Assembly (NCBI RefSeq): GCF_014946725.1 | Contig: NZ_JACFXY010000001.1 | Location: 620,001-684,000 of the forward strand | Length of the DNA stretch: 64,000 nucleotides | Reading direction: 5' to 3' | Source: Mixta mediterraneensis | GTDB taxonomy: Bacteria; Pseudomonadota; Gammaproteobacteria; Enterobacterales; Enterobacteriaceae | Shown: piece by piece, positions 36,234 to 45,014 of the stretch | How the letters are laid out: each line of letters begins with the position of its first letter | Numbering within the stretch: the first letter of the stretch is position 1 | The notes under the pieces: generated by a model | What the model saw: the letters and a program-made list of their open reading frames with translations, nothing else | Told to the model about the DNA's origin: nothing | Database searches by the model: none | Made by a program: the position numbers and the translations under genes

Positions 36234-36262
36234 AAAGGGGCATCTCGCGGGATGCCCTTTTT
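36234..36262. terminator. Terminator between speD and the deoR-family gene
   Basis: GGGCATC / GATGCCC stem with a TCGCGG loop, followed by five T residues and preceded by an A-rich run. It lies about 20 bp after speD and 14 bp beyond the stop of the convergent regulator gene, so it can serve both. Confidence 0.8.
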
Positions 36263-36275
36263 GATCTGCTAAGCG

Positions 36276-37037
36276 CTAATTTGTCAGCTGTAGCGCAATA
36301 CCTCGTTCGCGTAATTCCCATTTGACCCCGTCATCCAGCCGGTTATCCGTTACCACATCAGTCAGGGTTTCCAGCGGTGCGGCGCAAAACAGCGACCAGG
36401 AGCCGTATTTACTGCTGTCAGCCAGCAAAACACGTCGACCGGCATTAGCCAGCAAATCATGCTTCAGTCCGGCTTTTTCTTCGGTAGGCGTGGTGATGCC
36501 ACGCGCCAGGCTCCACGAGTTACAGCTAACAAAAGCAATATCAGGGTTAATGCTGCGCAGCAGGCGACGGCCATGCTCGCCAATGCAGGACTGGCTGGAA
36601 TCATCGATACGTCCACCAATAATGGTCACTTCAATCTGTTTGAATTCAGAAAGAAACAGCGCGATATGTAAATCGGCGGTAATCACCCGCAGCGGCAGAT
36701 GCGTCAACTGTCGAGCCAGCTCCAGCATGGTGGTGCCTGCATCCAGTACCACTGCATCGCCCGAGCGCACAAAGCTGGCAGCCTGCTCGGCAATCGCCTG
36801 CTTTTCAGCTAAATTACGCTGCATTTTTTCCAGCGTCGTCGGCTGGCTTGGAATAAATCGATTTAAGGTCACACCACCGTGGCTACGGCTGATCACGCCC
36901 TCTTTGTCCAGCTTGATTAAATCACGCCGGATGGTGGCCGGTGAGGCAGAAATCGCGCTCACTAACTGCTCTACAGTCACCAGATTATGGCTTTTCAGAT
37001 AATCCATAATCTGATCAAGACGACTTTGTCCCTTCAT
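36276..37037 (-). CDS. DeoR-family transcriptional regulator
   Basis: 253-residue DeoR repressor. The N-terminal winged helix is [36 protein letters not shown] (about 21-56); the C-terminal sensor domain has the sugar-phosphate-binding pattern [14 protein letters not shown]. It lies 6 bp after pdxA2 at the end of the dtnK-pdxA2-deoR operon and probably controls both arms of the island. Phosphorylated pathway intermediates are the usual effectors in this family; the specific one is unknown here. Confidence 0.88.
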
Positions 37038-37043
37038 ATTTCC

Positions 37044-38024
37044 CTATGCGAGCTGCATCGCGAGTTTGATGGAGATCGTCATGCTCTCAGACTTCGCTTT
37101 ACCTGTCCAGGCGATATCAAATGCCGTGCCGTGGTCTGCCGAAGTGCGAATAAACGGCAGCCCAGCAGTGATATTCACCCCATCATAAAAGCCCAGCAGT
37201 TTTAACGGAATATGTCCCTGATCGTGGTACATCGCTACCACCATATCGTATTGCCCTTCCTGACATTGCAGAAACACGGTATCCGGTGGGCAAGGGCCAT
37301 ATACGTCAATACCCTGCTCTTTCATCGCGTTGATTGCTGGCGCGACGGTCGTGATCTCTTCGTCGCCAAACAGCCCGTTTTCACCCGCGTGGGGATTAAC
37401 GCCTGCCACTGCGATACGCGGCTTTTCAAACCCGACGCGGCGCAGAAAGGTATCCGCCATGCCAATCACCGTTTCAATGCGGGTACGGTTCAATGTATCG
37501 AGAAATTTACGCAGCGCAATGTGCGTGGTGACATGGATCACCTTCAGCTTATCGGTGTACAGCACCATTGCGTAATCTTTGGTATGGGTCAGGTGCGCCA
37601 GCAGTTCGGTGTGACCGGGGTAGATATGACCCGCTGAGTGCAGCGCCTCTTTATTCAGCGGCGCCGTCGCGATGGCCTGCACCTCTCCCGCTAACGCCAG
37701 CCCGGTGGCGCGTTTAATACAGCGCCAGGCCAGGTCACCCGCTTCTTTCTGCACCACGCCAGGCTTCAACGTTTCAGGATTGGCTAGCGGTTCATCAATC
37801 ACATTAATGATGCCTGGCGCAAAATATGCGTCCTTTATGCTGTCGAGCACGCGCAGTTCAGCTTGAGGGGTGATATTCATAGCCAGGATACGGCGCAGGG
37901 TGCTGGCGCATCCCACCACGACCGCTGGCGCGCCATTCAGATCCCCTTCGGACAGTGACTTGATGATGATTTCCGGGCTAATGCCCGCCGGATCGCCCAT
38001 CGTTACCGCAATAACCTTATTCAC
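37044..38024 (-). CDS. pdxA2: PdxA2-type 4-phospho-threonate/erythronate dehydrogenase
   Basis: 326-residue PdxA family oxidoreductase. It begins VIAVTMGDPAGISPEI and has metal-ligand histidines in YPGHTELLAHL, NPHAGENGLFGDEE and AMYHDQGHIPLK. True PdxA acts in pyridoxine synthesis, but the PdxA2 branch pairs with DUF1537 kinases and oxidatively decarboxylates 4-phospho-D-threonate to dihydroxyacetone phosphate. The overlap of its start with the DUF1537 gene (8 bp) places it in that catabolic branch. Assignment to D-threonate rather than another tetronate is inference. Confidence 0.88.
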   Translation of the reverse strand: MNKVIAVTMGDPAGISPEIIIKSLSEGDLNGAPAVVVGCASTLRRILAMNITPQAELRVLDSIKDAYFAPGIINVIDEPLANPETLKPGVVQKEAGDLAWRCIKRATGLALAGEVQAIATAPLNKEALHSAGHIYPGHTELLAHLTHTKDYAMVLYTDKLKVIHVTTHIALRKFLDTLNRTRIETVIGMADTFLRRVGFEKPRIAVAGVNPHAGENGLFGDEEITTVAPAINAMKEQGIDVYGPCPPDTVFLQCQEGQYDMVVAMYHDQGHIPLKLLGFYDGVNITAGLPFIRTSADHGTAFDIAWTGKAKSESMTISIKLAMQLA

Positions 38025-39270
38025 TCAACGTCTCCTCAATAAAACGAATGGCTGCTACCAGGGTGTTTTCGTCGCCAAAGCCACCCGCTTTGGTCATCAC
38101 CGGCAAGTTAAATTCACTGTTAAGCAGAACCCCGTGCGGCACACAGCCTGCTACCAGGCCCTGAATTTGAAATCCGCTGGCTCCAAGCGCCTGAGCGACG
38201 GCAATCGCCACATCGCCGCCAGAGAGATAAAGCGCATCTGGCTGGTATTGGTGCAATAACCGACGGGTTAATTCACCTAAAAACTGGCAGATCGCCTCAC
38301 CCAGTTGCTGACGCGTCAGGTTTTGCTGCTGACAAAGTTGATCAATTTCGTGCCGCTGCTGTGCGTGCTGACAGGTGCGAATGACGGTGTGCTGACCGGC
38401 ACGCAACGCCGTCACGCTTTGCGCAATCCAGCCTGACGCTGAGGGCCAGACGGGTGACTGAAACAGCTGACGAACATCGATGTCGATCAGCGCTATGTCG
38501 CGCTGTTGCGCCAGCGTGCTGATTTGCTGCTGCGCACTGTTGCTCATCGATCCCACCACCGCTAATACCGCTTTGGCCGGTCGGGTAGAAAGGTGCGCAG
38601 CGAGCGCGTCACTCAAGCCTGCCGCGCCGACTAACAACGGCTTTTCCGCTAAACGCGCCGCCGCCTGCATCAGACGGGCAATGTCGGCGTCCTGTTCGGC
38701 ATCCACCACCACCACCCCGCCTAATTCAGCCAGCACGGCATCCAGGTGCTCGCTGCGCAGCGTGGCGAGATCAATCTGTGTGCCCGGCAGCTGGAGCTGC
38801 TGTAAAACATGGGCGCTGAGGATAGGCGTTTTGGGATCGCTGGCAAATTCGGTATCGGTTAACAACACATCGTTAAGATAAACCGCGCCGTTGCGCGTAG
38901 TGCGCCCCAGTCGCGGTACAGCGGGCACCACCAGTGCCAGTTGTCTGCCGCTGGCCGTCAGCACCGCCATGATTTCGGCCCCGACATTGCCGCGCAGCGT
39001 TGAATCGATCTTTTTATATAACCAGCCCTGAAGCGGTTGATATTGCTTCACCACCTGGGTGATGCGCTCTGCCGCCTGCCCGGCGCTGATAGCCCGGCTG
39101 TCTGTGCTGATTACCCATACGTCTGCCGCTTCACTGTCATGCAGCGTATCGTTGCTGAACAGCACATGGACGCGAGCACCCGCCTGGGCAAATCCACTGC
39201 CCGCATCGTTTGCGCCAGTGAAGTCATCGGCAATCACTAGTACCGGCGTTTTCCATGACGATTGCGTCAT
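38017..39270 (-). CDS. dtnK: Four-carbon acid sugar kinase (DUF1537), DtnK-like
   Basis: 417-residue kinase of the DUF1537 family, which phosphorylates four-carbon sugar acids. The ATG at 39270 follows AGGAGAGACA; 17 in-frame codons upstream belong to the regulatory region. Visible motifs are VIADDFTGANDAGSGFAQAG (acid-sugar domain), KKIDSTLRGNVGAE, and in the C-terminal ATP domain LYLSGGDVA and CVPHGVL. It heads the leftward operon with pdxA2 and deoR. The same trio occurs at the speD locus of Salmonella by memory, which is why I use dtnK; substrate stereochemistry is not readable. Confidence 0.82.
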   Translation of the reverse strand: MTQSSWKTPVLVIADDFTGANDAGSGFAQAGARVHVLFSNDTLHDSEAADVWVISTDSRAISAGQAAERITQVVKQYQPLQGWLYKKIDSTLRGNVGAEIMAVLTASGRQLALVVPAVPRLGRTTRNGAVYLNDVLLTDTEFASDPKTPILSAHVLQQLQLPGTQIDLATLRSEHLDAVLAELGGVVVVDAEQDADIARLMQAAARLAEKPLLVGAAGLSDALAAHLSTRPAKAVLAVVGSMSNSAQQQISTLAQQRDIALIDIDVRQLFQSPVWPSASGWIAQSVTALRAGQHTVIRTCQHAQQRHEIDQLCQQQNLTRQQLGEAICQFLGELTRRLLHQYQPDALYLSGGDVAIAVAQALGASGFQIQGLVAGCVPHGVLLNSEFNLPVMTKAGGFGDENTLVAAIRFIEETLSE

Positions 39271-39313
39271 TGTCTCTCCTGTCTCGGTTGTTTGCCGCTG
39301 AGGATGATTATAT

Positions 39314-39363
39314 TCAATCACTATTGATTATATGTGAGCAAGATCAAATTAATCGAAATCAAT
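39314..39363. promoter_or_regulatory. Divergent regulatory region with CRP-like site and ATTGATT repeats
   Basis: The 189 bp between dtnK and the alcohol dehydrogenase gene hold a CRP-like site TGTGA-N6-TCAAA (39333-39348) and repeated ATTGATT/AATCAAT half-sites: the palindrome TCAAT-N4-ATTGA at 39314-39327 and inverted copies at 39323-39329 and 39357-39363. The half-sites are candidate operators for the local DeoR regulator. Both assignments are predictions. Confidence 0.5.
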
Positions 39364-39459
39364 ATGCCCTATAAATTGAGCCACAGTAAGTGACTGCACT
39401 CGCACTGACATGAGCAAAAGCAATCATTCAGGTCAGAGACACAGTAATAAGGGTATGAA

Positions 39460-40623
39460 ATGAATATCAACAGCACGGTTATTAGCAGTTACCAGGCGCT
39501 AAACGACATAAGGTATCTGCTGAACGGTAAGACGAAAGCATTGTTGGTTACCGATAAGAATATTGAGAGTATTCCGGCCGTTAAGACGCTCATCGCGCAA
39601 CTGAAGCAGCAGATTGCTACCGTCAGCGTGGTAAACAACGTGCCGCCAGAGCCGAGCCAGCACGATGTGGCTGCCATTCTTAGCGCATTGCCTGCGCGTG
39701 ACGTCGAGCTGGTGATTGGCGTTGGCGGCGGCAGCGTGCTAGACGTTGCTAAACTGCTGTCGGTGCTGTGTGTGGAGAACGCGCCTTCGCTGGACGCGCT
39801 GCTGGCGGGCGAAAAGCCGCTGCATCGCACCACGTCGCTGCTGATTCCTACCACCGCCGGAACCGGCTCCGAAGCGACGCCAAACGCCATTCTGGCGATC
39901 CCGGAAAATGCCACTAAAGTTGGCATCATTTCGCCCGTCATGCTGCCCGACGTTGTGGCGCTGGTGCCTGAACTCACTACCAGCATGCCTGCGCACATCG
40001 CTTCGTCTACCGGCATTGATGCGCTGTGCCACCTGATCGAATGTTTCACCGCTACCGTGTCGAATCCGGTGAGCGATAACTATGCACTGACTGGCATGAA
40101 GAAGCTGTTCGCAAACCTTGAAACCACCCTTAGCGAGCCGGGAAATTTGCAGGCGCGCCTCGAAATGTTGTGGGCGTCTTATTATGGCGGTGCGGCCATT
40201 GCCCACGCCGGGACGCATCTGGTGCACGCTATGTCTTATCCGCTGGGCGGTAAATATCACCTGCCGCATGGCGTTGCTAACGCCATTTTGCTGGCGCCGT
40301 GCATGCGTTTTGTCCGCCCTGCCGCAGTGAAAAAATTTGCTCAGGTTTACGATTTGTTGCCTGACGCGGATACGACGCTTGATCACGACGCGAAATCGCA
40401 CGCGTTAGTGGATTACTTCACCGCCCTGGTGAAACGCCTGCAATTACCCGCCAGCCTGGAAGAGCTGGGCATTAGCCCGGATCACTTGCCTTATTTAGTA
40501 GAAGCCGCGCTGGATGTGCAACGCCTGATGAAAAATGTCCCGATGGCCGTTTCTGCCAACGATGTGCGTGACGTTTATCTGACGCTGTTTCCTTCACACC
40601 AGGAACAACGAGGAGTCGTATGA
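39460..40623 (+). CDS. Iron-containing alcohol dehydrogenase
   Basis: 387-residue group III (iron-type) alcohol dehydrogenase. The NAD-binding GGGSVLDVAK and TTAGTGSEAT are present; metal ligands are the Asp and His of GIDALCHLIECF, then His in GTHLVHAMSYPLGGKYHLPHG and the His further along that segment. It leads the rightward operon and overlaps the aldolase gene by four bases (ATGA). It probably oxidises a hydroxy acid or reduces the aldehyde released by the aldolase; the substrate is unknown. Confidence 0.88.
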   Translation: MNINSTVISSYQALNDIRYLLNGKTKALLVTDKNIESIPAVKTLIAQLKQQIATVSVVNNVPPEPSQHDVAAILSALPARDVELVIGVGGGSVLDVAKLLSVLCVENAPSLDALLAGEKPLHRTTSLLIPTTAGTGSEATPNAILAIPENATKVGIISPVMLPDVVALVPELTTSMPAHIASSTGIDALCHLIECFTATVSNPVSDNYALTGMKKLFANLETTLSEPGNLQARLEMLWASYYGGAAIAHAGTHLVHAMSYPLGGKYHLPHGVANAILLAPCMRFVRPAAVKKFAQVYDLLPDADTTLDHDAKSHALVDYFTALVKRLQLPASLEELGISPDHLPYLVEAALDVQRLMKNVPMAVSANDVRDVYLTLFPSHQEQRGVV

Positions 40624-41504
40624 GCAAGAAAATAGCTGGCGTATTAACCGCCATCGTCACCACTTTTGATCGCGATGGCGCATTTAATCCTGTCACCCAA
40701 CGCGAACAGATAAAACGCCAGCTCAGCGCGGGCAACGGCATCTTCTGCGGTGGTACTAACGGCGAGTTTTTTGTACTGAACGAGCAGGAAAAAATCGCCG
40801 TTACGGAAACCTGTGTGGATGAAGTGAATGGCAGCGCGCCGGTTGTCGCGCACATTGGTGAAATTTCTACCCGCGAAACTATCCGTCTCGGCAAGCAAAT
40901 CGCCAGGCTGGGCGTTGATGCGGTATCGGTAATTACGCCTTATTTCGTGCCGCTGAAGCAGGAAGAACTGATTTATCACTACCAAACGGTGGCCGACGCG
41001 CTCGATGTGCCGCTGTTTCTTTACAACATTCCGGCGCGTACCGGTAACACCCTGCAGCCCGATACGGTGCGTAAGCTGGCGTCGCATCCGAACATCATCG
41101 GTATTAAAGACTCGGCAGGCAGCGATGAAAGCCTGAGCGGTTTCCTGAAAGCGGTACAGGATATTGAGAATTTCGATGTACTGAACGGCCCGGACTCGCT
41201 GATTCATCAGGGTTTCGTTGACGGTTGCTCTGCCTGCATCTCCGGGCTCGCCAACGTTGCGCCGAAAGAGATTAACGCTATCTGGGCCCGCTTTCATGCG
41301 GGTGATGTGGAAGGTTCACGTCTGGCGCAAGAAAGCGTAACTGGCCTGCGTACCGATCTGTACAGCGTGGGTTTCTCACCGGCTGCAGTGAAAAAAGCCG
41401 TCACGCTGCTCGGCTACGATGTGGGCGAAAGCCGCTATGCGGTGCACTTCAGCCCCGACGACGTGCAAAAGATTCGCCAGATTGTGAATCAGTACCTGCA
41501 GTAA
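40620..41504 (+). CDS. DapA/NanA-family pyruvate-dependent aldolase
   Basis: 294-residue class I aldolase/dehydratase of the dihydrodipicolinate synthase superfamily. Schiff-base Lys is in IIGIKDSAGSDE, the proton-relay Tyr in FLYNIPARTGN, and the pyruvate-binding loop is GGTNGEFF (family pattern G-T-T/N-G-E). True DapA is housekeeping and elsewhere, and operon context with a kinase, dehydrogenases and a transporter points to a catabolic 2-keto-3-deoxy acid aldolase. A 213-bp gap with a small hairpin (CAGGGCA/TGCCCTG at 41512-41530) follows. Confidence 0.88.
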   Translation: MSKKIAGVLTAIVTTFDRDGAFNPVTQREQIKRQLSAGNGIFCGGTNGEFFVLNEQEKIAVTETCVDEVNGSAPVVAHIGEISTRETIRLGKQIARLGVDAVSVITPYFVPLKQEELIYHYQTVADALDVPLFLYNIPARTGNTLQPDTVRKLASHPNIIGIKDSAGSDESLSGFLKAVQDIENFDVLNGPDSLIHQGFVDGCSACISGLANVAPKEINAIWARFHAGDVEGSRLAQESVTGLRTDLYSVGFSPAAVKKAVTLLGYDVGESRYAVHFSPDDVQKIRQIVNQYLQ

Positions 41505-41717
41505 TGGCCGTCAGGGCAGCTTTTGCCCTGGTCCCAACGGGGCGCGTGATGACGCCCTGACCTGACACCGCATACTCCCGCGTGTGGCATTGATCGTTCA
41601 TCACCTGAATTACGCATTGTTCGCCTGTCCAGACAAGGCATCGAATATCACCTTTGAATCCTACCGGCTGGATGAGAACGAACCCGATGGTCGCCATCCA
41701 CCCGAATTATCGAGGTC

Positions 41718-43136
41718 ATGATGAATGCATTTTCAACGGAGAGTACCCTGCTGATCGTCGGCATGGTTGTCGCTTACATTCTGTTTACCACCTGGCTTAC
41801 ATGGCGGCTGCGTAGCAAAAGCAGCGGTGACTTTATGGAAGGATCGCGCGCCATGCCAGCGTTTATCGTTGGTATTATGCTGATGTCGGAATACATCGGC
41901 GCCAAATCAACCATCGGCACGGCGCAAGCGGCGTTTGAAGATGGTTTCGCCGCCTCCTGGTCAGTGATTGGCGCGGCGATTGGCTTCCCGCTATTTGGTC
42001 TGATTCTGGTGAAGCGCATCTACAATACCGGCAAAATCACCATTTCTGGCGCAATTGCCGAGAAGTACGGTAATTCAACCAAAAACATCATTTCGCTCAT
42101 CATGATTTATGCGCTGCTGCTGGTAAACGTAGGCAATTACATCAGCGGTGCAGCGGCCATTTCAACCGTGTTGAAAATCGATCTGACGCAAGCCGCTTTT
42201 ATCACCGCAGTGGTCAGTACCTTTTACTTTGCCTTTGGCGGTATGAAGGGTGTCGCCTGGGTTACCTTACTGCACAGCGCCCTGAAGTATGCCGGCATTC
42301 TGATTATCCTTTACGTGGCGCTACACATGACCGGCGGTATTGCGCCGATGATGCAAAAAATGCCTGATTTTTACTGGACGTGGGACGGTCACGTGGGTGC
42401 CAGCACCATTGTGGCGTGGTTGATTGGTACTATCGGCTCGCTCTTCTGTACCCAGTTTGTTATTCAGGCCATCTCGTCAACCAAAGATGTGAAATCGGCG
42501 AAGCGTGCGACCTGGGTGGCCTTCTTCTTCTGTCTGCCGATTGGTCTGGCGATGGCATTGATTGGCGTGGCGGCGAAGTTTGCCCACCCTGACATTAAGA
42601 GCCTGTATGCGCTGCCGGTGTTTCTGCAGGACATGTCGCCATGGCTGGCGGTCATTGTGACCACATCGCTGGTGGCGTCGATCTTTGTCAGCGTCGGCAC
42701 CGTGGCGCTGGCGGTTGCCTCGCTGGTGGTAAAAGATTTTTATGTGCCGTACCGCAATCCCACGCCAGAACGTGAATTCAAAATGACGCGCTGGATCTCT
42801 ATCGCCATCGGCTTTTTCCCGCTGCTGTTTGTGCTGTTCTTCCCGGAAGTGCTGAAGCTGTCGTTTTTCACCCGCGCGATTCGTCTGTCGATTACCGTGG
42901 TGGCAATCATGGCGTTCTATCTGCCGTGGTTTAAGAGTACGCGTGGTGCAAATGCCGGTCTGATTGGTGCCTGCGTGGTGACGTCTGTGTGGTTCATCCT
43001 CGGTAACCCGTTTGGCATCAACAATATGTACGTCGCGCTGACTACGCCGGCGATCATCATGGTGATCGATCGCTGCATCCCGTCACGTCAGTCGCAGCAC
43101 AACACGCAACATAATGCACAAAAAAGTGGAGCTTAA
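41718..43136 (+). CDS. Sodium/solute symporter (SSS family)
   Basis: 472-residue inner-membrane symporter with about 13 hydrophobic helices. The region SGDFMEGSRAMPAFIVGIMLMSEYIGAKSTIGTAQAAFEDG is typical of SSS transporters, as is the second-half sequence with KSAKRATWVAFFFCLPIG. SSS members carry sugars, sialic acids, proline, pantothenate and others; this one is most likely the importer for the island's substrate. An A-rich, hydrophilic C-terminus ends 1 bp before the next start codon. Confidence 0.88.
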   Translation: MMNAFSTESTLLIVGMVVAYILFTTWLTWRLRSKSSGDFMEGSRAMPAFIVGIMLMSEYIGAKSTIGTAQAAFEDGFAASWSVIGAAIGFPLFGLILVKRIYNTGKITISGAIAEKYGNSTKNIISLIMIYALLLVNVGNYISGAAAISTVLKIDLTQAAFITAVVSTFYFAFGGMKGVAWVTLLHSALKYAGILIILYVALHMTGGIAPMMQKMPDFYWTWDGHVGASTIVAWLIGTIGSLFCTQFVIQAISSTKDVKSAKRATWVAFFFCLPIGLAMALIGVAAKFAHPDIKSLYALPVFLQDMSPWLAVIVTTSLVASIFVSVGTVALAVASLVVKDFYVPYRNPTPEREFKMTRWISIAIGFFPLLFVLFFPEVLKLSFFTRAIRLSITVVAIMAFYLPWFKSTRGANAGLIGACVVTSVWFILGNPFGINNMYVALTTPAIIMVIDRCIPSRQSQHNTQHNAQKSGA

Positions 43137-43137
43137 A

Positions 43138-44334
43138 ATGACTCAGGAAACCGTCACCGTAGAGCGCACCGGCCAGGTCGCACCCCATCCGCAGGATGCC
43201 GCGCAGCAGGTCGCGATGCTGCCTTCACACTGCGTACAAAATCATGCTGCAAATTTGTTGCCACTGCCGAATGGCGATCTGCTTTGCGTCTGGTTTGGTG
43301 GCACTCAGGAAGGGATTGCGGATATTTCAGTGTGGTGTTCGCGGTTGGTCAATGGCAGCAAACAGTGGAGTGATGCTGAAAAGCTGTCGGACGATCCCAG
43401 CCGATCAGAGCAAAATCCCGTACTGTTCCTCGATCCTGATCAGGTGTTGTGGCTAATGTGGACGGCACAAAAATCGGGCAATCAGGACACCGCGATCGTG
43501 CGTTATCGCCAGTCACGTGACTTTGGTCGCAGCTGGGGCGCCATTGACACGCTGCTGAATAAACCCGGCACCTTTATCCGTCAGCCAATGATCGTGCTGC
43601 CTAATGGCAACTGGCTGCTGCCAGTGTTTTACTGCCTGACACAGCCGGGCGAAAAATGGGTGGGCAGTTATGACGTCAGCGCCGTGAAGATTTCTGAGGA
43701 TAAAGGCCAGACCTGGCGTGATGTTGCCGTACCTGACAGTATCGGCTGCGTGCACATGAACGTTACATTACTGGATGACGGTTCGCTGCTGGCGCTGTAT
43801 CGCAGCCGCTGGGCCGATCATATTTATCAAAGCCGTTCTGTCGATCATGGCGAAAGCTGGAGCGCGCCACAGCCGCTGTCATTGCCCAACAACAACTCAT
43901 CGATTCAGGTTACCACCCTGCGCAACGGCCATCTGGCGCTGGTATTCAACGCCATGAGCGCCGAAGGAGCCAGCGAGCGTCGCCTGTCGCTGTATGACGA
44001 GATCGAAGATGATGACGATGATGTTGCCGTAGCGGTGGCCGTTGAACCGGTGGTGCGTTCCGGTCGCAGCGCGTTCTGGGGAGCGCCGCGTGCGCCAATG
44101 ACGCTGGCGATCTCTCGCGATGGCGGTAAAAGCTGGCCGTTGCAGCGCAATCTGGATGAGGGCGATGGCTATTGCATGACTAACAATTCGCAGCAGAAGT
44201 TAAACCGTGAGTTCTCATACCCCAGTATCAAACAGGGCGCAGACGGCGAGTTGCATATCGCTTACACCTATTTCCGCCAGGCGATTAAATATGTGCGTGT
44301 GAAGGAGTCCTGGGTACAAGGCGGTGACGCGTGA
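43138..44334 (+). CDS. Sialidase-fold (BNR/Asp-box) protein, probably cytosolic
   Basis: 398-residue six-bladed propeller-type protein. Four Asp-box motifs S-x-D-x-G-x-(S/T)-W are visible: SRDFGRSWG, SEDKGQTWR, SVDHGESWS and SRDGGKSWP. The ATG at 43138 follows GGAG by seven bases. No signal peptide is present, so it should act inside the cell on an imported compound. At the N-terminus, where sialidases have an Arg in R-I-P, I see NHAANLLPLPNG instead; FIRQP comes later. An insert DDDDDVAVAVAV is odd. The predicted-neuraminidase label fits the fold, not the reaction. Confidence 0.82.
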   Translation: MTQETVTVERTGQVAPHPQDAAQQVAMLPSHCVQNHAANLLPLPNGDLLCVWFGGTQEGIADISVWCSRLVNGSKQWSDAEKLSDDPSRSEQNPVLFLDPDQVLWLMWTAQKSGNQDTAIVRYRQSRDFGRSWGAIDTLLNKPGTFIRQPMIVLPNGNWLLPVFYCLTQPGEKWVGSYDVSAVKISEDKGQTWRDVAVPDSIGCVHMNVTLLDDGSLLALYRSRWADHIYQSRSVDHGESWSAPQPLSLPNNNSSIQVTTLRNGHLALVFNAMSAEGASERRLSLYDEIEDDDDDVAVAVAVEPVVRSGRSAFWGAPRAPMTLAISRDGGKSWPLQRNLDEGDGYCMTNNSQQKLNREFSYPSIKQGADGELHIAYTYFRQAIKYVRVKESWVQGGDA

Positions 44335-45014
44335 TGGCTAAAACGGCGCTGGTCACCGGCGCCAGCTCGGGCATCGGTCAGGCAATTGCTAGCACGTTGC
44401 TGGCACAGGGCTGGCAAGTGATCGGCCTGAGCCGTTCGGCGATTCAGCACGAGCATCCGGCGCTACGCACTTATCAGGTAGATATTAGTGACGCCACAGC
44501 GCTGCAGACGTTACTGGCACAGCTGCCTGTACCGCAAGCCGTGGTTCATGCTGCTGGAATGATGCAGGCCGCACCGCTGGGCGAACTGGATTTGAACGCC
44601 AGCGCGCGATTGTGGCAGTTACATATCGCGGCGGCGGAACAGCTGGCGAACCATTACGCTCCGCAAATGCAGCCAGGCGGCAGGATGGTACTGCTCGGCA
44701 GCCGCACCTCACGTGGTGCGGCCGGTCGAAGCCAGTATGTTGCCACCAAGTCGGCGATGGTGGGCATGGTACGGAGCTGGGCGGCAGAACTGGCGCCGCG
44801 CGGCGTTACGGCAAATATTGTGGCGCCGGGCGCAACGGAAACGTCGATGCTAAAACAGCCGGGACGAGAGAGCTCGCCGCCCAAATTGCCGCCGATTGGT
44901 CGCTATATCCAGCCGCAGGAAGTGGCTGAAGTGGTGAGTTTTTTATTGTCGCCCGCTGCGGCAGCGATTACCGGTCAGGAGCTGGTGATATGCGGCGGCG
45001 CATCGCTCCTCTGA
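44334..45014 (+). CDS. Short-chain dehydrogenase/reductase
   Basis: 226-residue classical SDR. Cofactor motif TGASSGIG at about residues 8-15, NAG-like motif VHAAGMM, catalytic Ser in LLGSRTSRG and YxxxK in SQYVATKSA. The ATG shares bases with the sialidase-like stop (TGATG), so it is coupled; a GTG three bases upstream is also in frame. Last gene of the rightward operon. Likely an NAD(P)-dependent oxidation or reduction of a sugar acid; substrate unknown. Confidence 0.88.
   Translation: MAKTALVTGASSGIGQAIASTLLAQGWQVIGLSRSAIQHEHPALRTYQVDISDATALQTLLAQLPVPQAVVHAAGMMQAAPLGELDLNASARLWQLHIAAAEQLANHYAPQMQPGGRMVLLGSRTSRGAAGRSQYVATKSAMVGMVRSWAAELAPRGVTANIVAPGATETSMLKQPGRESSPPKLPPIGRYIQPQEVAEVVSFLLSPAAAAITGQELVICGGASLL

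What the first reader, a model, noticed from the sequence alone, without database searches (positions are those of the whole stretch)
36276..45014. Eight-gene catabolic island between speD and yacL with an unrecognised gene combination
A DUF1537 kinase/PdxA2/DeoR operon (tetronate to dihydroxyacetone phosphate by family knowledge) faces an operon with iron alcohol dehydrogenase, DapA/NanA-like aldolase, SSS importer, cytosolic sialidase-fold protein and SDR. A coherent reading: an imported glycoside or ulosonic acid derivative is opened by the sialidase-like protein, oxidised or reduced, split by the aldolase into pyruvate plus a C4 unit, then channelled through threonate/erythronate. I do not know a described pathway with this set.
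Basis: partly seen in the sequence, partly recalled or inferred. Interest (0 to 1): 0.85.

Follow-up and report, generated by a model that had tools for sequence, protein, structure and literature searches.

The report
Predicted Dha pectin-sugar catabolic regulon
Two back-to-back operons that share a conserved regulatory sequence and recur together in many bacteria, among them plant-associated genera and part of E. coli, likely form one pathway that would break down Dha, a rare sugar acid of plant pectin, into pyruvate and a glycolysis intermediate.

Summary
In 17 of 17 Pantoea-group genomes where bnr sits elsewhere, dapA and pdxA2 are still present, and in 16 of them one composite site (TGATTN6AATCA plus a CRP-like half) occurs exactly twice, at the core and upstream of sss. 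Three core-only genomes have one site; two genomes lacking both have none. I read this as one regulon. DtnK and PdxA2 pass D-threonate equivalog cut-offs. The aldolase keeps the DHDPS-type Arg that suits a carboxylated C4 aldehyde; relatives add a YhcH-family (anomerase-type) gene and swap transporters. Of the ulosonic acids I considered, only Dha (3-deoxy-D-lyxo-2-heptulosarate of pectic RG-II) gives pyruvate plus a C4 aldehyde acid that reduces to D-threonate. Prediction: Dha -> pyruvate + D-threonate -> DHAP + CO2. The substrate is inferred, not shown. The gene set is already in print, without a pathway, as E. coli region GR 6. The 'sialidase' has the fold but appears to lack two hallmark residues.

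The parts
36276..37037 (-). DeoR/GlpR-family regulator, likely repressor of the regulon
   Evidence: PF00455/PF08220; no NCBIfam equivalog cut-off met
36238..36257 (-). terminator-like hairpin after deoR
   Evidence: consensus match only, not above the shuffled level
37044..38024 (-). pdxA2, D-threonate 4-phosphate dehydrogenase
   Evidence: NF002891 665.7 bits against cut-off 583
38017..39273 (-). dtnK, D-threonate kinase (DUF1537); listed ORF opens at GTG 39321, likely true start ATG 39273
   Evidence: NF047819 533.5 bits against cut-off 450; start inferred from the palindrome position
39305..39320 (.). conserved palindrome TGATTATATTCAATCA, likely operator of the DeoR protein
   Evidence: part of the only composite match in genome G000; exact form in 49 of 62 divergent intergenic regions, shuffled mean 0.08 (the window's own copy lay outside the stretch scanned there)
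39333..39348 (.). CRP-like site TGTGAGCAAGATCAAA between the divergent operons
   Evidence: exact in 33 of 62, within one mismatch in 61 of 62 regions; CRP consensus recalled
39460..40623 (+). iron-containing alcohol dehydrogenase, predicted to reduce the C4 aldehyde acid to D-threonate
   Evidence: PF00465/PF25137; nearest NCBIfam models ErcA, 4-hydroxybutyrate DH, lactaldehyde reductase, all below cut-off
40620..41504 (+). DapA/NanA-type class I aldolase, predicted to cut Dha into pyruvate and C4
   Evidence: PF00701; Lys163, Tyr135, Arg140, GTNGE conserved; below the DapA and NanA cut-offs
41718..43136 (+). SSS-family symporter, predicted importer
   Evidence: PF00474; sss found in 72 of 80 named loci (counted from the table), other importers in the rest and beyond
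43138..44334 (+). BNR_2 protein of sialidase fold, predicted cytosolic hydrolase of a Dha glycoside (ORF opens at 43114)
44331..45014 (+). SDR-family oxidoreductase, step unknown; not found in the DASS-type Klebsiella/Escherichia loci
   Evidence: PF13561/PF00106; 5 of 80 loci with yhcH and DASS lack it, as does L136
45021..45038 (+). terminator-like hairpin after sdr
   Evidence: consensus match only, not above the shuffled level

Best explanation
[quoted passage not shown] Predicted steps: the SSS symporter imports Dha or a small Dha glycoside; the BNR_2 protein would free Dha inside the cell; the open-chain form (helped in relatives by a YhcH-family anomerase) is cut by the DapA-type aldolase into pyruvate and a C4 aldehyde acid; the Fe-ADH reduces that to D-threonate; DtnK phosphorylates it and PdxA2 oxidises it to dihydroxyacetone phosphate plus CO2. 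Shown here: gene families, conservation, co-occurrence, the shared site and the D-threonate equivalog scores. Inferred: every catalytic step upstream of D-threonate, the substrate, and that DeoR and CRP bind the sites.
For: End of the pathway: DtnK and PdxA2 exceed curated D-threonate cut-offs. A solved DUF1537 kinase (PDB 4xfm) is 98.8% identical to the dtnK of the same cluster in L122. One unit: 59 of 80 named bnr loci have all four core genes; 17 of 17 genomes with unlinked bnr have dapA and pdxA2 elsewhere. Composite site: two hits in 16 of those 17, one in 3 of 3 core-only genomes, none in 2 of 2 lacking both, reversed control none in 25 of 25. Nested versions: dtnK-pdxA2 with a KdgT permease alone (L143); core plus yhcH and TRAP without bnr (L141); full set. 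Ulosonic acid: yhcH in 60 of 80 loci; E. coli YhcH supplies open-form Neu5Ac to its aldolase (PMC8141875, abstract and passages). C4 aldehyde acid: the aldolase keeps the DHDPS-type Arg, whereas a paralogue beside a pentulose kinase does not (L120). Dianion: CitMHS/DASS-type permease in 5 of 80 loci and in the E. coli locus read, TRAP-TAXI in 2 Vibrio loci. Stereochemistry: cutting and reducing the D-lyxo acid gives D-threonate; 2 of 8 stereoisomers do.
Against: No call shows Dha as substrate. I noticed no RG-II depolymerase among the ORFs read and no KdgR-like box in the intergenic regions printed, but searched for neither. A cytosolic glycosidase needs an imported glycoside, yet DASS and TRAP importers suggest import of free acid. 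BNR_2 lacks the Glu and apparently the first Arg of true sialidases. Four other-class loci (L113-L116) use another DapA (about 27% identity) without the Arg, and in L113, the one scanned, kinase and PdxA are below the D-threonate cut-offs, so they may act on another substrate. Kinases of L137, L092 and L138 also fall below the DtnK cut-off (433, 383 and 243 against 450 bits), and the PdxA of L138 below its own. dtnK was not detected in L058, L059 and L093; L043 has dapA and sss in pieces; L139 keeps only bnr and an Fe-ADH piece. Roles of the SDR and of the D-2-hydroxyacid dehydrogenase found in relatives are unexplained. The window genome has no DUF386 (YhcH) gene.
Confidence: 0.5

Rival explanations
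1. One regulon, but for a different ulosonic or 2-keto-3-deoxy acid: the same route acts on another C7 diacid such as the D-xylo epimer, or a lactone or anhydro form, or the aldolase product is processed differently before D-threonate.
For: The D-xylo isomer would also give D-threonate; other-class versions differ in aldolase and kinase; extra modules with a D-2-hydroxyacid dehydrogenase and MFS, or a PF04199 cyclase, suggest further inputs.
Against: Dha is a known natural C7 ulosaric acid of plants (PMC12168206, passages) and of Tetraselmis walls (PMC7693365, passage); no natural D-xylo isomer is known to me (recalled).
Confidence: 0.25
2. Two co-regulated but chemically separate systems: D-threonate is eaten as such, and the aldolase/BNR_2 operon handles an unrelated compound whose products do not become D-threonate.
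For: deoR-pdxA2-dtnK occurs without the aldolase, with its own KdgT-type permease, in L143; feADH-dapA stand without a detected dtnK in L058, L059 and L093; the nearest named Fe-ADH families are aldehyde reductases and alcohol dehydrogenases of several kinds.
Against: The five core genes recur together with shuffled order in other families of the order and in other classes; one composite site serves core and bnr module.
Confidence: 0.12
3. A sialic-acid (nan-type) system: BNR_2 is a sialidase, the aldolase is NanA and the transporter imports Neu5Ac.
For: Sialidase fold, DapA/NanA family aldolase, SSS transporter, YhcH-family gene in relatives.
Against: NanA models far below cut-off (147 against 281, 119 against 382); the YhcH relatives are below the Neu5Ac anomerase cut-off (97-108 against 160); hallmark sialidase residues appear replaced; none of the eight genes is a NanE- or NanK-type gene.
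Confidence: 0.05
4. A vitamin B6 salvage route in which DUF1537 and PdxA2 make a PLP precursor, as suggested for E. coli GR 6.
For: Suggested in PMC12928451, citing Thiaville 2016 (passage; Thiaville not read).
Against: The window genome has two other PdxA homologues (3 in all); curated models name both enzymes as D-threonate enzymes; it does not explain the aldolase, the transporter swaps or the CRP-like site.
Confidence: 0.04

Closest known systems
D-threonate pathway (DtnK, D-threonate 4-phosphate dehydrogenase PdxA2)
   Same: Both enzymes exceed the curated equivalog cut-offs; this is the terminal part
   Different: Here it is joined to an aldolase/reductase/BNR_2 operon; the published source of D-threonate is open as far as I recall (Zhang 2016 not held)
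N-acetylneuraminate catabolism (NanA aldolase with YhcH/NanQ anomerase)
   Same: Pyruvate-releasing DapA/NanA-family aldolase, YhcH-family gene (in relatives) and sialidase-fold protein in one system
   Different: No ManNAc kinase or epimerase among the eight genes; aldolase has Arg where NanA has Leu (NanA residue recalled); nan-specific models below cut-off
Galactarate/glucarate pathway (GarL aldolase, GarR reductase, GarK kinase; recalled)
   Same: Same logic one carbon shorter: keto-deoxy-diacid cut to pyruvate plus aldehyde acid, reduced, phosphorylated
   Different: GarL is an HpaI-type aldolase; the C3 product is tartronate semialdehyde, not a C4 aldehyde acid
E. coli genomic region GR 6 (nagE-glnS), PMC12928451
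   Same: Same genes: permease, EbgC/NanQ-like, COG4692, DapA, Fe-ADH, OtnK/DtnK, PdxA2, GlpR-like
   Different: Listed there as uncharacterised sugar metabolism; no pathway or regulon in the passages read; SLC13 permease in place of SSS and no SDR
GH33 sialidases
   Same: Sialidase beta-propeller fold, Asp boxes, Tyr and two Arg conserved
   Different: Glu partner is His214 and the first Arg of the triad appears to be His44, invariant in 80 of 80 named loci
RG-II degradation by Bacteroides thetaiotaomicron (GH143 Dha hydrolase; recalled, paper not held)
   Same: Would release Dha outside the cell
   Different: Extracytoplasmic polysaccharide utilisation; the fate of Dha inside cells was not described in any passage I read

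Membership tests
D-threonate catabolic pathway | D-threonate kinase equivalog NF047819 over its cut-off | tested here: met
   533.5 against 450 bits
D-threonate catabolic pathway | D-threonate 4-phosphate dehydrogenase equivalog NF002891 over its cut-off | tested here: met
   665.7 against 583 bits
D-threonate catabolic pathway | measured activity on D-threonate | not testable with these tools
   needs enzyme assay; 4xfm is 98.8% identical to the kinase of the same cluster in L122, its activity recalled only
GH33 sialidase | sialidase beta-propeller fold with Asp boxes | tested here: met
GH33 sialidase | complete Arg triad | tested here: inconclusive
   R230 and R326 kept; first Arg appears to be H44 in 80 of 80, but that position was mapped by motif spacing, not by a tool alignment
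GH33 sialidase | Tyr nucleophile with Glu partner | tested here: not met
   Y369 kept; the Glu position, 16 before the second Arg in the profile alignment to NanC, is H214 in 80 of 80; the catalytic role of that Glu is recalled
Neu5Ac (nan) catabolism | NanA equivalog over cut-off | tested here: not met
   147.2 against 281 and 118.6 against 382
DHDPS (lysine biosynthesis DapA) | TIGR00674 over cut-off | tested here: not met
   177.5 against 206.15; the genome has a better DHDPS match at C28:321691
Pyruvate-releasing class I aldolase (DapA/NanA superfamily) | Schiff-base Lys and active-site Tyr | tested here: met
   K163 and Y135 conserved in all sequences aligned (81, 15)
YhcH/NanQ anomerase (relatives only) | YhcH/YjgK/YiaL family TIGR00022 over cut-off | tested here: met
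   91.8-104.9 against 45.5 bits in L030, L057, L092; absent from the window genome
YhcH/NanQ anomerase (relatives only) | N-acetylneuraminate anomerase equivalog NF040884 | tested here: not met
   97-108 against 160 bits
Dha catabolic pathway (proposed) | growth on Dha and aldolase activity on Dha | not testable with these tools
   bench work needed

The most novel reading that the evidence does not exclude
This is the first catabolic pathway for Dha, one of the two ulosonic acids of rhamnogalacturonan II: a CRP- and DeoR-controlled regulon of plant- and gut-associated bacteria that turns the C7 diacid into pyruvate, DHAP and CO2 through D-threonate, so that D-threonate is an internal intermediate rather than the food. 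It uses a new sialidase-fold enzyme class with a His-substituted active site; a paralogous BNR_2/DapA/pentulose-kinase cluster (L120) would be the matching Kdo pathway.
Probability: 0.45. Interest if true: 0.87.

Novelty: new variant of a known kind. Interest (0 to 1): 0.72.

Why it matters
RG-II is conserved across all plants (PMC12168206, abstract) and is in human food, yet I saw no description of what bacteria do with its rarest sugar, Dha, after release. The BNR_2 gene of this cluster is in 1043 of 5426 complete E. coli genomes and in many plant-associated genera, so a substrate would explain a common metabolic difference between strains. It would also give D-threonate, an enzyme substrate in search of a source (recalled), a metabolic origin, and give a function to a sialidase-fold family now named as sialidases.

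Tried and rejected
Sialidase or nan reading: rejected on curated cut-offs and active-site residues. PLP salvage: rejected as main role. Solved relatives of BNR_2 by sequence: a single sequence gave none; the profile matched pieces of sialidases and a few unrelated chains. B. thetaiotaomicron BT_1020 was not among the 50 rows shown of the fold searches, which proves nothing. A second, Arg-bearing aldolase beyond the other-class clusters: none in the three downstream stretches (G341, G201, G353; L145-L147) and one upstream stretch (G341; L148) read; L115 (G138) was not extended. A pectin link by position: a GH28 polygalacturonase/ABC operon lies near the unlinked sss-bnr module in 7 of 10 Pantoea loci, but as a separate operon and in none of the other loci held then, so I do not count it. 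Of five order-level genomes with weaker BNR_2 (E about 1e-65) I read two: G642 has the full divergent core, G624 only bnr and an Fe-ADH piece; G541, G615 and G652 were not read. pdxA2 without bnr was found in 5 of 12 order-level genomes (G023, G457, G630, G641, G661), of which G641 was not read. Literature: no listed title or abstract deals with bacterial Dha catabolism, but the listings were capped (20 of 155, 20 of 24, 20 of 48 and 20 of 34 papers shown), the library lacks most subscription journals, and Ndeh 2017 and Zhang 2016 were not held.
Full report
What is there. Between speD and yacL sit two divergent operons: deoR-pdxA2-dtnK on the minus strand and feADH-dapA-sss-bnr-sdr on the plus strand. 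DtnK and PdxA2 exceed the curated D-threonate cut-offs (533.5 against 450; 665.7 against 583 bits; PdxA2 also passes the general PdxA model). The aldolase is below the DapA (177.5 against 206.15) and NanA (147.2 against 281) cut-offs, the Fe-ADH below all listed models, and BNR_2 has no NCBIfam match.

Do the operons belong together? In 59 of 80, pdxA2, dtnK, feADH and dapA are all on the same fetched stretch; 6 have part of the set and 15 none (presence judged by BLAST score, and one of the 59, L043, has dapA and sss in pieces). Of the partial ones, L022, L032 and L090 run off the stretch or contig, while in L058, L059 and L093 dtnK was not detected. Of the 15, two (L054, L063) start 525 bases before bnr at a contig end; 13 are a separate sss-bnr-(yhcH)-sdr module. 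I therefore asked whether such genomes keep the core elsewhere: in 17 of 17 bnr-positive genomes with an unlinked module, orthologues of dapA (84-90% identity) and pdxA2 (86-92%) are present. In the three of these that I read (L129, L132, L135) they form deoR-pdxA2-dtnK/feADH-dapA-D2HADH-MFS beside yacL or speD. In 295 genomes spread over the order, 8 have a strong BNR_2 match; 7 of them have dapA and pdxA2 over threshold, and the eighth (G610) carries divergent versions next to bnr. The converse is looser: dapA without bnr in 3 of 10, pdxA2 without bnr in 5 of 12 genomes of that sample.

One regulatory signal. Sixty-two divergent dtnK-feADH intergenic regions share a palindrome TGATTN6AATCA (exact in 49, within one mismatch in 56; block-shuffled mean 0.08 and 1.5) and a CRP-like site (exact in 33, within one mismatch in 61; shuffled 0.14 and 2.9). 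Related species are not independent, so these counts overstate the number of events. The stronger test is the unlinked module: the palindrome is within 300 bases upstream of sss in 12 of 13 such loci (13 of 13 with one mismatch; shuffled mean 0.02 and 0.16) and the CRP-like site in 10 of 13. The gap between dapA and sss in the window holds neither. The composite site, searched over 25 whole genomes, gives exactly one hit in the window genome (window 39305-39339), two hits (core and upstream of sss) in 16 of 17 genomes with the unlinked module, one in the 17th (G034), one in each of three core-only genomes (G003, G023, G032) and in each of two further genomes with the linked set (G311, G422), none in two genomes without core or bnr (G001, G057), and none for the reversed control pattern in all 25. 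I read this as one regulon; that the DeoR protein binds the palindrome and CRP the half-site is inference. The hit also moves the likely dtnK start to ATG 39273.

What the chemistry should be. The end is D-threonate to DHAP. The step before must make D-threonate. The DapA-type protein keeps the class I aldolase residues Lys163 and Tyr135, and Arg140 at the place of the DHDPS Arg (E. coli Arg138, role recalled) that holds the carboxylate of aspartate semialdehyde, a C4 aldehyde acid; it is marked by GTNGE. Relatives carry a YhcH-family gene (60 of 80 loci; TIGR00022 over cut-off, NanQ equivalog not, three scanned). E. coli YhcH gives Neu5Ac aldolase the open form of its substrate (PMC8141875, abstract and passages). 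So the substrate should be a ring-forming ulosonic acid whose aldol product is a C4 aldehyde acid. [quoted passage not shown] Cleaving Dha between C3 and C4 gives pyruvate and a C4 aldehyde acid whose reduction yields D-threonate; the D-lyxo and D-xylo forms among 8 stereoisomers do. Kdo, Neu5Ac and Kdn would give neutral sugars instead (recalled chemistry). This elimination is the heart of the case and is an inference.

Transporters. The importer differs by group: SSS in 72 of 80 loci, a CitMHS/DASS-type permease in 5 (Klebsiella, Escherichia, Pseudocitrobacter), TRAP-TAXI in 2 (Vibrio), and in 6 Erwinia and Pantoea loci an extra MFS (nearest model D-galactonate transporter, below cut-off) with a D-2-hydroxyacid dehydrogenase. 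The other-class loci have genes that look like Opp-type ABC transporters (named by eye). A swap of unrelated importers around a fixed enzyme core is usual for a catabolic pathway; the divalent-anion types fit a diacid.

Breadth and prior record. The BNR_2 gene matches in 1043 of 5426 complete E. coli genomes; in the one record read, the cluster lies between glnS and nagE. K-12 MG1655 has nothing at that site. PMC12928451 (passages) lists the set as region GR 6 among uncharacterised sugar-metabolism features, notes a similar cluster in Sinorhizobium meliloti and points to PLP synthesis. Hence the gene set is not new to print; a pathway, substrate and regulon for it were not found in the capped listings. 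A parallel: in L120 a 28% BNR_2 paralogue lies with a DapA lacking the Arg, a pentulose kinase over its subfamily cut-off (549 against 408.7), a protein with a weak, below-cut-off sugar-isomerase match and genes that look like a TTT transporter (by eye), the set one would expect for Kdo (pyruvate plus D-arabinose). This is one locus only, and the isomerase-like protein has no match among solved structures.

Verdict. I hold one regulon ending in D-threonate at about 0.85 and Dha as its substrate at about 0.5.

Noticed in passing
L120:5630-13925 (genome G290): Paralogous cluster: FGGY pentulose kinase, a protein with a weak sugar-isomerase match, DapA without the Arg, BNR_2 (28%), TTT-like transporter and LacI-like regulator; would fit Kdo catabolism.
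   Followed up: partly
window 39273-39321: The GTG start listed for dtnK overlaps the conserved palindrome; ATG at 39273 is the likelier start.
   Followed up: yes
L057:9207-9968, L136:11142-11900: A TerC-family membrane protein sits inside the Klebsiella and E. coli versions of the cluster; L137:10977-11939 has a Na/Ca exchanger-family gene beside it.
   Followed up: no
L030:6109-8471, L129, L130, L142: A D-2-hydroxyacid dehydrogenase and an MFS gene follow dapA in several core loci, suggesting a second input to the same aldolase; in L130, L131, L133 and L135 a second MFS and a cyclase-like gene (PF04199 in L130) follow.
   Followed up: partly
L020:1649-6253: ABC transporter plus GH28 polygalacturonase-family operon near the unlinked sss-bnr-sdr module in 7 of 10 Pantoea loci.
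   Followed up: partly
L143:7755-11771 (genome G457): deoR-pdxA2-dtnK with a KdgT-family permease at the same speD-yacL site, probably a D-threonate uptake version.
   Followed up: no
L134 (genome G005), G040, G055: Cluster genes broken by stops in some Pantoea-group genomes, and dtnK not detected in L058 and L059: the pathway seems to decay in some lineages.
   Followed up: no
L136 (E. coli NZ_CP128875.1): Cluster between glnS and nagE of E. coli; 1043 of 5426 complete genomes match its BNR_2 gene, while K-12 MG1655 has nothing at that site.
   Followed up: partly
L118:9533-10801, L121:9177-10403: More distant BNR_2 paralogues lie among genes that look like membrane and glycosyltransferase genes, not catabolic ones; same His44, Arg, Arg, Tyr pattern.
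   Followed up: no
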